64,000 bases of DNA, from contig CAMAUC010000008.1 in assembly GCA_945861265.1 (NCBI GenBank), positions 1-64,000 on the forward strand, read 5' to 3'. The notes under the pieces were generated by a model. It was not told where the DNA came from and did no database searches. It saw only the letters and a program-made list of their open reading frames with translations. The stretch comes from Rhizobium sp. Q54 (lineage in GTDB: Bacteria > Pseudomonadota > Alphaproteobacteria > Rhizobiales > Xanthobacteraceae). The position numbers and the translations under genes were made by a program. This document shows, piece by piece, positions 2,717-11,099 of this stretch (position 1 is the first letter of the stretch; every line of letters starts with the position of its first letter).

Positions 2717-2741
2717 GGAACTCTTGCCCGGCCGGCGCGTT
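2717..2741 (+). promoter_or_regulatory. EcfG-type promoter GGAAC-N16-CGTT
   Basis: GGAAC at 2717-2721 and CGTT at 2738-2741, 30 nt before the ATG at 2772. Confidence 0.65.
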
Positions 2742-2771
2742 TTTGCAGCGGGATCACGGGAGATTAGACAC

Positions 2772-2972
2772 ATGCGACTTCTGCTTGGCATTATTCTTGG
2801 CGCGCTTTTGACGATCGGCGGCGCCTATCTCGTCGATCAGCACAACACCACTGTTGCGGCGGAAACACCGGCCGCCGTGCAGCGGCCGATGGTCAACTGG
2901 GACGTCGTCGGCGTGAAATGGCAGCACCTGACTGAGCGCGCGCGCTCGGAATGGACGCGCGTCGCGGGCTGA
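2772..2972 (+). CDS. Small (66 aa) membrane-anchored hypothetical protein
   Basis: MRLLLGIILGALLTIGGAYLVDQHNTT...: single N-terminal helix; preceded by an EcfG-like promoter; the ORF-track start at 2724 lies upstream of that -10. Confidence 0.6.
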   Translation: MRLLLGIILGALLTIGGAYLVDQHNTTVAAETPAAVQRPMVNWDVVGVKWQHLTERARSEWTRVAG

Positions 2973-9025: not shown

Positions 9026-9050
9026 GGAACAGTAGCGGTGCGACGACGTT
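9026..9050 (+). promoter_or_regulatory. EcfG-type promoter GGAAC-N16-CGTT
   Basis: GGAACAGTAGCGGTGCGACGACGTT, 47 nt before ATG 9098. Confidence 0.7.
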
Positions 9051-9097
9051 CTTTCCACTCACCAGGCATTTGTCGCCGGGGTGCACAGGAGAGTGGA

Positions 9098-9784
9098 ATG
9101 AACAAGTCACGCCTATGGTCGACCGCGGCGATCGCGCTGATGCTCGGCGCCGGTGCAACCTTTGCCCAGGCGCCGTCAAAGGACCAGGCGCCGGCGCAAC
9201 CCGCGCCCGCCGCGCAGCAGAACGCGCCGGCCGAAAAGATCGCGCCGGCCTCGCAATCCGTCGAGCGCAAGGCTTCTGAACAGAAGGCATCGGAACAAAA
9301 AGCTTCCGACGAGAAGCCGGCGGCCGGCGCGCACGCCACGGGCGCCGCCGACGCCAGCGGCAAGGCCGATATCAAGACGCCGGCGAATGCCGGTAAGGCC
9401 GAGATCAAGGGCGCGGCCGAGCCGAACAAGACGGCTGAATCCGGCAAGGACAGCAGCAAGGCTTCCGATAGCAGCAAGGCATCGGAGACCAGCAAGTCTT
9501 CCACCACCGGTCAGGGCGCGGCATCGGGTGCGGCGAAGCTCTCGACCGAGCAGCGGAGCAAAATCACCACCGTGATCCGCCAGCAGAAAGTTCAGCCGGT
9601 GCGTCTCGACGTGTCGATCAGCGTCGGTACCCGCGTGCCGTCGAGCGTGCGTTACTATCCGCTGCCGGTCGAGGTCGTGACAATCTATCCCGAATGGCGC
9701 GGCTACGATTACATCCTGGTCGGCGACCAGATCGTGATCATCGATCCACGCTCGCATGAAATCGTCGCCATCATTGAGGCGTAA
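9098..9784 (+). CDS. DUF1236 domain-containing secreted protein
   Basis: Signal peptide, low-complexity linker, C-terminal QRSKITTVIRQQKVQPVRLDVSISVGTRVPSSVRYYPLPVEVVTIYPEWRGYDYILVGDQIVIIDPRSHEIVAII. Confidence 0.85.
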   Translation: MNKSRLWSTAAIALMLGAGATFAQAPSKDQAPAQPAPAAQQNAPAEKIAPASQSVERKASEQKASEQKASDEKPAAGAHATGAADASGKADIKTPANAGKAEIKGAAEPNKTAESGKDSSKASDSSKASETSKSSTTGQGAASGAAKLSTEQRSKITTVIRQQKVQPVRLDVSISVGTRVPSSVRYYPLPVEVVTIYPEWRGYDYILVGDQIVIIDPRSHEIVAIIEA

Positions 9785-9797
9785 ATCGAGCGACAGC

Positions 9798-9830
9798 GCG
9801 CGGCGTGTTGTTACACACCGCGCCCCTTAA
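9798..9830 (+). terminator. Hairpin terminator-like
   Basis: GCGCGGCGTG-TTGTTA-CACACCGCGC followed by CCCTTAATT. Confidence 0.45.
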
Positions 9831-9853
9831 TTGCCTAACGCCAGCTGGTTCCC

Positions 9854-9878
9854 GGAACCGAACTCGGATCGATGCGTT
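9854..9878 (+). promoter_or_regulatory. EcfG-type promoter GGAAC-N16-CGTT
   Basis: GGAACCGAACTCGGATCGATGCGTT, 54 nt before ATG 9933. Confidence 0.7.
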
Positions 9879-9932
9879 GCTTTCGCAGTGCCCCCTCGCA
9901 CTCAACCCGACAATCCCCAAGGAGACGACACC

Positions 9933-10370
9933 ATGAAGACCCTGACCACCATGACCGCGATCGCGGCGCTAATCACCGGCATCTCTTTTGCGAACGCGCA
10001 GAACTCCGGCAACACGCCGTCGAACAGCGCGACGCCGCCGAGCAGCATCAACTCGAAGGCGACCGATACCCAGAGCTCGAAGAGCGGCACCGAAAGTTCC
10101 GGCGCGGCGCAGATGAAGGCCAAAGGCGCGCAGCAAGGCCAGGCGACTCAGAACAATGTGCCGCCGAGCAACTTGGACGCCAAGATGCCCGACACCCAGT
10201 CGAACAAGAGCGGCAACCAGGCCGCCAATCCGAAAACGGCTCCGTCCACGACGGGCATGAACTCGGACACGAAGGCCAACGCGAACGTGCCGCCGAGCAG
10301 CATCAATGCGAAGGAGCCGGACACAAATTCGAACAAGAGCGGTTCGCAGCCCTCCGGCACCGCGAAGTAA
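9933..10370 (+). CDS. Secreted low-complexity protein with three PPSxxNxK..DTxSxKSG repeats
   Basis: Signal peptide MKTLTTMTAIAALITGISFANA; repeats TPPSSINSKATDTQSSKSG, VPPSNLDAKMPDTQSNKSG, VPPSSINAKEPDTNSNKSG. Confidence 0.7.
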   Translation: MKTLTTMTAIAALITGISFANAQNSGNTPSNSATPPSSINSKATDTQSSKSGTESSGAAQMKAKGAQQGQATQNNVPPSNLDAKMPDTQSNKSGNQAANPKTAPSTTGMNSDTKANANVPPSSINAKEPDTNSNKSGSQPSGTAK

Positions 10371-10391
10371 TTTCTGCAACGACGTTTGATC

Positions 10392-10424
10392 AGCCCCGCG
10401 ATTTCGGTCGCGGGGCTTTTTCTT
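10392..10424 (+). terminator. Rho-independent terminator
   Basis: AGCCCCGCGATTTCGGTCGCGGGGCTTTTTCTTTT. Confidence 0.85.
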
Positions 10425-10435
10425 TTGGGTCTGCC

Positions 10436-10460
10436 GGAACCTGCTGTTGCGCCGACCGTT
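10436..10460 (+). promoter_or_regulatory. EcfG-type promoter GGAAC-N16-CGTT
   Basis: GGAACCTGCTGTTGCGCCGACCGTT, 37 nt before ATG 10498. Confidence 0.7.
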
Positions 10461-10497
10461 GATTTGACGCAAAAAGCAACCACCGGAGGCAACCGCC

Positions 10498-10731
10498 ATG
10501 AAAACTCTGATGATTTCCGCAATTGTCGCCGCGTCATTCGCCGGCCTTACGTCCGCGAACGCTGCGTCGACGGGTAATGGCCGCTATTGCGTGGAGCAAT
10601 CGCCCGGCTCTTTTGAAAAGTATTGCAACTTCGCCACCCTCAAGGCTTGCCAGAAGCAGGCACAGCCGCAGTTCCTGCGCTGCATGCCAAATCCGAAACA
10701 CGGCACCACCGGCTCGGCGTCGCGCAGATAG
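10498..10731 (+). CDS. DUF3551-like small secreted protein
   Basis: Signal peptide; GNGRYCVEQSPGSFEKYCNFATLKACQKQAQPQFLRCMPNP Cys-patterned. Confidence 0.7.
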   Translation: MKTLMISAIVAASFAGLTSANAASTGNGRYCVEQSPGSFEKYCNFATLKACQKQAQPQFLRCMPNPKHGTTGSASRR

Positions 10732-10766
10732 ACGGCCGGACGCGGCGCGATCGCGCATGCGTGGCA

Positions 10767-10784
10767 TTCCCGCCGGCGCGGGAA
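10767..10784. repeat. REP-like palindrome TTCCCGC-CGGC-GCGGGAA
   Basis: Perfect inverted repeat; the right arm contributes the GGAA of the csbD -35. Confidence 0.55.
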
Positions 10785-10805
10785 CGACGCGCCGGTTTGG
10801 ACGTT
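10781..10805 (+). promoter_or_regulatory. EcfG-type promoter GGAAC-N16-CGTT
   Basis: GGAACGACGCGCCGGTTTGGACGTT, 43 nt before ATG 10849. Confidence 0.7.
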
Positions 10806-10848
10806 GTCGTGACGATTTCCGTGAAACGCAAAACCGAAAGAGGACAGC

Positions 10849-11031
10849 ATGAACAAAGATCGCATCGAAGGCAGCGCCACCCAGGCCAAAGGCAAGGTCA
10901 AGGAAGTCGCCGGCAAAGTGACGGGCGACGCCAAGCTGGAGACCGAAGGCAAGGCCGATCAGGTCAAAGGCAAGGTGCAGAACGCCGTCGGCGGCATGAA
11001 GGACACGATCAAGGAAGCTCTCGACAACTGA
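10849..11031 (+). CDS. CsbD family stress protein
   Basis: MNKDRIEGSATQAKGKVKEVAGKVTGDAKLETEGKADQVKGKVQNAVGGMKDTIKEAL. Confidence 0.92.
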   Translation: MNKDRIEGSATQAKGKVKEVAGKVTGDAKLETEGKADQVKGKVQNAVGGMKDTIKEALDN

Positions 11032-11071: not shown

Positions 11072-11099
11072 AAAACCCGGCCTTCGCGCCGGGTTTTCG
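11072..11099 (+). terminator. Rho-independent terminator
   Basis: AAAACCCGGCCTTCGCGCCGGGTTTTCGC. Confidence 0.75.

What the first reader, a model, noticed from the sequence alone, without database searches (positions are those of the whole stretch)
9026..11031. Four consecutive small genes each preceded by an exact EcfG general-stress promoter (GGAAC-N16-CGTT)
Exact GGAAC-N16-CGTT occurs at 9026-9050, 9854-9878, 10436-10460 and 10781-10805, lying 47, 54, 37 and 43 nt before the ATGs of a DUF1236 protein, a triplicate-repeat secreted protein, a DUF3551-like protein and CsbD. With nine fixed bases, a random 64 kb strand would contain about 0.24 such motifs (64000/4^9, uniform composition). Three CDSs are followed by terminator-like hairpins, so each looks like an individually transcribed stress unit. 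This reads as a compact cell-envelope stress island under PhyR-NepR-EcfG-type control; the CDSs of largely unknown function become candidate general-stress effectors.
Basis: partly seen in the sequence, partly recalled or inferred. Interest (0 to 1): 0.82.

Follow-up and report, generated by a model that had tools for sequence, protein, structure and literature searches.

The report
Four stress-promoter genes in a row
Four neighbouring small genes, three for exported proteins and one for the stress protein CsbD, each carry their own switch for the general stress response of alphaproteobacteria; the switches are kept in about 30 related genomes, so this is a real but mechanistically ordinary part of that regulon.

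Summary
All four GGAAC-N16-CGTT sites are exact and at the stated places, and a fifth at 2717-2741 was missed. The same genome encodes PhyR, NepR and EcfG, and phyR itself has this promoter. Exact sites in the genome are mostly intergenic (52/76, against 2/30 for the reversed pattern). In a motif-blind search of upstream regions across the genus, this dyad comes out first: 28/30 for csbD and 19/20 for DUF1236. Thirty genomes of the genus (relatives labelled Pseudolabrys sp.) keep DUF1236 upstream of csbD. In the two closest relatives the promoter boxes have 0 changes of 72 and the spacers 32 of 112. The middle of the cluster varies: 0, 1 or 2 genes, sometimes a gene2/DUF3551 fusion. The DUF1236 domain is predicted to have a CigR/RcnB-like fold, and mature gene 2 is a repetitive hydrophilin-like protein. 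What is new is the cluster and its candidate effectors; the control mechanism is textbook. Weaker points: only two of the 'terminators' are canonical, DUF3551 may read through into csbD, and there are no expression data. Verdict: a new member of a known kind.

The parts
9026..9050 (+). EcfG-type promoter of the DUF1236 gene (GGAAC-N16-CGTT)
   Evidence: exact match; top motif-blind dyad in 19 of 20 orthologous upstream regions
9098..9784 (+). DUF1236 protein, 228 aa: signal peptide, about 135-residue low-complexity hydrophilic linker, C-terminal CigR/RcnB-like domain
   Evidence: Pfam 1.2e-18; model pLDDT 91; Foldseek best hit CigR 4ew5, prob 1.00; dN/dS 0.25-0.28
9797..9822 (+). strong hairpin after DUF1236, no U-run; at best a weak terminator
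   Evidence: fold -20 kcal/mol; not listed by the terminator scan
9854..9878 (+). EcfG-type promoter of gene 2
   Evidence: exact match; present in relatives
9933..10370 (+). gene 2, 145 aa: signal peptide plus disordered, hydrophilin-like protein with three repeats of about 18 residues (PPSSINSKATDTQSSKSG type)
   Evidence: no family; mature GRAVY -1.25, Gly 7.3%; homologues in the same slot in relatives; dN/dS 0.19
10392..10417 (+). intrinsic terminator after gene 2
   Evidence: 11-pair stem plus T-run
10436..10460 (+). EcfG-type promoter of the DUF3551 gene
   Evidence: exact match; exact in the two closest relatives
10498..10731 (+). DUF3551 protein, 77 aa, signal peptide, four cysteines in the mature part
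   Evidence: Pfam 2e-8, above cut-off; dN/dS 0.17-0.18
10781..10805 (+). EcfG-type promoter of csbD
   Evidence: exact match; top motif-blind dyad in 28 of 30 orthologues
10849..11031 (+). CsbD, 60 aa, no signal peptide
   Evidence: Pfam 1.4e-20; PDB relative YjbJ 1ryk 4e-9
11072..11097 (+). intrinsic terminator after csbD (bidirectional)
   Evidence: 10-pair stem plus T-rich tail
   Evidence: orthologous sites before the same gene in L098 and L110
2772..2972 (+). 66-aa membrane or secreted protein of no known family, downstream of the fifth site
   Evidence: coding score; homologues with motif in L098 and L110; no Pfam or NCBIfam match

Best explanation
A compact cluster of general-stress genes in a Hyphomicrobiales bacterium of the Pseudolabrys group. 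Stress-activated PhyR sequesters NepR and frees the sigma factor EcfG, which directs RNA polymerase to four separate GGAAC-N16-CGTT promoters, one before each gene. The products are three exported proteins (a DUF1236 protein with a disordered tail and a CigR/RcnB-like domain, a disordered repeat protein, and a small Cys-containing DUF3551 protein) and cytoplasmic CsbD. They probably protect periplasm and cytoplasm during desiccation, osmotic or related stress. Shown by sequence: the promoters, their conservation, the regulators, the synteny and purifying selection. Inferred: EcfG dependence, inducing signals, start sites and protective function.
For: Exact sites at promoter distance. PhyR, NepR and EcfG genes in the genome, with the same motif 26 nt before phyR. 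Own genome: 52/76 sites intergenic and 44/76 within 200 nt upstream of a same-strand gene, against 2/30 and 1/30 for the reversed pattern (Fisher 3e-9 and 5e-8). Motif-blind dyad search: GGAAC-N16/17-CGTT ranks first in 28/30 csbD and 19/20 DUF1236 upstream regions. 30 genomes keep the order; boxes 0/72 changed, spacers 32/112. csbD is listed as a directly regulated EcfG target in Sphingopyxis granuli (PMC7083833).
Against: No transcript or mutant data. A second ECF sigma factor 38% identical to EcfG exists in the genome and could share or replace EcfG at these sites. No clear terminator between DUF3551 and csbD. In some relatives the gene 2 promoter is degenerate, and DUF1236 of G104, csbD of G110 (one mismatch) and csbD of G117 (upstream region cut by a contig end) lack an exact site.
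Confidence: 0.9

Rival explanations
1. The promoters are real ECF promoters but are used mainly by another ECF sigma factor of the genome (for example the EcfG-like one at C57), so the cluster is not strictly a PhyR-NepR-EcfG target.
For: A second ECF sigma factor, 38% identical to EcfG, with a PhyR_sigma2 domain match.
Against: GGAAC plus CGTT is the canonical EcfG pair (PMC8103513; PMC7083833); phyR of this genome carries the same motif.
Confidence: 0.06
2. The cluster is transcribed as one or two operons from the DUF1236 or gene 2 promoter, and the downstream motifs only add to it.
For: All genes on one strand in about 2 kb; no U-run after the DUF1236 hairpin and none after DUF3551.
Against: A canonical terminator after gene 2; the motif before csbD is the best conserved even where the middle genes are absent.
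Confidence: 0.15
3. Chance matches in a GC-rich genome.
For: Genome-wide exact matches (76) are no more numerous than the reversed control (84).
Against: They sit between genes rather than inside them, are conserved in position while spacers diverge, and the genome holds no comparable cluster: the next tightest four sites among the contigs checked span 24 kb against 1.8 kb.
Confidence: 0.01

Closest known systems
EcfG (sigma-EcfG/SigT/RpoE2) general stress regulon of Alphaproteobacteria
   Same: GGAAC-N16/17-CGTT promoters; phyR divergent from nepR-ecfG; targets include csbD and many small secreted or unknown proteins (PMC7083833, PMC6599016)
   Different: Four single-gene units side by side with a variable middle; DUF1236 and DUF3551 were not found described as targets in the held papers
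csbD of Sphingopyxis granuli TFA (SGRAN_3063)
   Same: CsbD family, direct EcfG target
   Different: Here it is the conserved end of a multi-gene cluster
CigR/RcnB-type periplasmic domain (PDB 4ew5; RcnB assignment of the fold class is from own knowledge)
   Same: Predicted fold of the DUF1236 domain (Foldseek prob 1.00 for 4ew5, E 0.009; profile match E 0.025)
   Different: Only 19% identity; no evidence for a metal or other role; long hydrophilic linker in front
Hydrophilins / LEA-like proteins
   Same: Mature gene 2 has Gly 7.3% and strong hydrophilicity (GRAVY -1.25), and is repetitive
   Different: Exported, of no known family; protection not tested

Membership tests
EcfG-dependent promoter | -35 GGAAC and -10 CGTT with 16-17 nt between | tested here: met
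EcfG-dependent promoter | Located shortly upstream of a start codon, intergenic | tested here: met
   37-54 nt before ATG; all four intergenic
EcfG-dependent promoter | Genome encodes EcfG, NepR and PhyR | tested here: met
   NepR 6e-14; PhyR NF006623 2e-110, ECF sigma NF009192 4e-99; locus order
EcfG-dependent promoter | Boxes conserved at orthologous genes | tested here: met
   28/30 csbD, 19/20 DUF1236
EcfG-dependent promoter | Expression lost in an ecfG mutant; mapped start site | not testable with these tools
   needs an experiment
CsbD family | Pfam CsbD above cut-off | tested here: met
   73.4 bits, cut-off 40
DUF1236 family | Pfam DUF1236 above cut-off | tested here: met
   67 bits, cut-off 32.4
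DUF3551 family | Pfam DUF3551 above cut-off | tested here: met
   34.7 bits, cut-off 26.5
RcnB/CigR family (DUF1236 domain) | Significant sequence or fold match | tested here: inconclusive
   profile E 0.025; Foldseek E 0.009, prob 1.00, TM 0.59; no RcnB family match in Pfam
Hydrophilins (gene 2) | Gly above 6% and high hydrophilicity | tested here: met
   Gly 7.3%, GRAVY -1.25; thresholds from own knowledge
Hydrophilins (gene 2) | Protects in dehydration assays | not testable with these tools
   needs an experiment

The most novel reading that the evidence does not exclude
The cluster is a modular envelope-protection cassette of this genus: small genes that each bring their own stress promoter, with fixed ends (DUF1236 and csbD) and an interchangeable middle (disordered repeat proteins, DUF3551, and fusions of the two), whose exported products act together as periplasmic dehydration or metal-stress protectants.
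Probability: 0.25. Interest if true: 0.55.

Novelty: new member of a known kind. Interest (0 to 1): 0.4.

Why it matters
The function of most EcfG targets is unknown. A cluster conserved over some 30 genomes, with the promoters as the best conserved feature between the genes, names a short list (DUF1236, gene 2, DUF3551) to delete and test as envelope protectants beside CsbD. It also yields a predicted regulon of about 44 promoter-gene pairs for this little-studied group.

Tried and rejected
Chance: rejected by the genome-wide position bias and by conservation. Bulk genome-wide over-representation: not present (76 against 84 reversed-control matches); only the position upstream of genes is enriched. 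That caller did not itself call DUF3551, whose reality rests on Pfam and on conservation. The control classification covers 30 of the 84 control sites (those returned as loci). A regular expression for DUF1236 starts failed and was replaced. NCBIfam gave nothing for DUF1236, gene 2 or DUF3551. The held papers contain nothing on DUF3551, and for DUF1236 only one report of induction, by aluminium in Rhizobium phaseoli (PMC8909678). In other genera of the family, csbD homologues have an exact site in 14 of 28 loci, so csbD control is common but not universal there; many of those loci are distant paralogues. Three family/structure calls failed on a wrong frame and were repeated.

Full report
Observation. 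The window holds five exact sites with N16 or N17, against 0.99 expected in dinucleotide shuffles. The fifth, 2717-2741 +, was missed and precedes a 66-aa ORF that keeps the site in two relatives. The genes are a DUF1236 protein, a protein of no family with three 18-residue repeats, a DUF3551 protein and CsbD. Canonical terminators follow genes 2 and 4 only.

Regulators. The genome has one NepR gene in the standard arrangement: phyR divergent from nepR-ecfG, each supported by family models. An exact site lies 26 nt before the phyR ATG, which fits the autoregulation described for EcfG systems (PMC8103513). The closest other sigma factor to EcfG in this genome is 38% identical.

Genome-wide test. 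Exact sites are not over-represented in bulk (76, reversed pattern 84). Their position is what stands out: 52 of 76 are intergenic and 44 lie within 200 nt upstream of a same-strand gene, against 2 and 1 of 30 classified control sites (Fisher p 3e-9 and 5e-8). About 1.2% of genes have such a site, so four in a row are expected about 8e-5 times per genome if sites were spread at random. The cluster spans 1.8 kb; the next tightest four sites span 24 kb among the contigs with several sites that were checked.

Conservation. In 44 genomes of the genus, 39 have a DUF1236 match and 38 a CsbD match. Thirty have DUF1236 upstream of csbD on one strand of one contig, with 139 to 1092 nt between. Without using the motif, a search for the commonest spaced word pair in upstream regions returns GGAAC-N16/17-CGTT first, in 28 of 30 csbD and 19 of 20 DUF1236 regions. 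Against the two closest relatives the boxes have no changes in 72 positions and the spacers 32 in 112. These genomes are related and not independent, but the spacers have diverged. Named relatives are labelled Pseudolabrys sp. and Hyphomicrobiales. Bradyrhizobium DUF1236 homologues also carry the site or a one-mismatch form; a simple pattern search found no csbD in the fetched flank.

Anatomy. The full four-gene form is seen in the window's genome and its two closest relatives. Others have a single middle gene like gene 2 or a gene 2/DUF3551 fusion, or none. All four genes are under purifying selection (dN/dS 0.09-0.28). The DUF1236 domain models with confidence (pLDDT 91) and is nearest to CigR (4ew5), by fold and weakly by profile. 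Mature gene 2 meets the composition criteria of hydrophilins.

Mechanism and status. The best reading is four EcfG-dependent units. EcfG dependence is inferred; for csbD it is reported in Sphingopyxis granuli (PMC7083833). Protective function is a guess from composition and from the company the genes keep. The system works like, and by every testable feature belongs to, the EcfG regulon. The novelty lies in the arrangement and the candidate effectors, hence a moderate score.

Noticed in passing
window 2717-2972: Fifth exact EcfG site before a 66-aa membrane or secreted protein of no known family, conserved in two relatives (L098, L110) near the same cluster.
   Followed up: partly
L010 (G000:C2:120240 and 120365): Two exact EcfG sites in tandem before one small secreted protein gene.
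   Followed up: no
L041/L069 (genome G139): Two EcfG sites 99 nt apart before csbD with no middle gene; the first may be the relic promoter of a lost gene.
   Followed up: no
L050, L057, L066: Gene 2-like leader and DUF3551 domain fused in a single EcfG-promoter gene in genomes where the two are not separate.
   Followed up: partly
L100:10887, L116:8261, L117:8274, L118:8234: EcfG-type site upstream of a membrane protein of about 500 aa, possibly a sensor kinase (not family-searched), in Bradyrhizobium and another genus.
   Followed up: no
L222 (G000:C57:18563-19012): Second ECF sigma factor, 38% identical to EcfG, with a PhyR_sigma2 domain match; possible EcfG paralogue.
   Followed up: partly
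L152 (G000:C67:12551-12576): Exact EcfG site about 240 nt upstream of an RpoH-like sigma factor gene.
   Followed up: no
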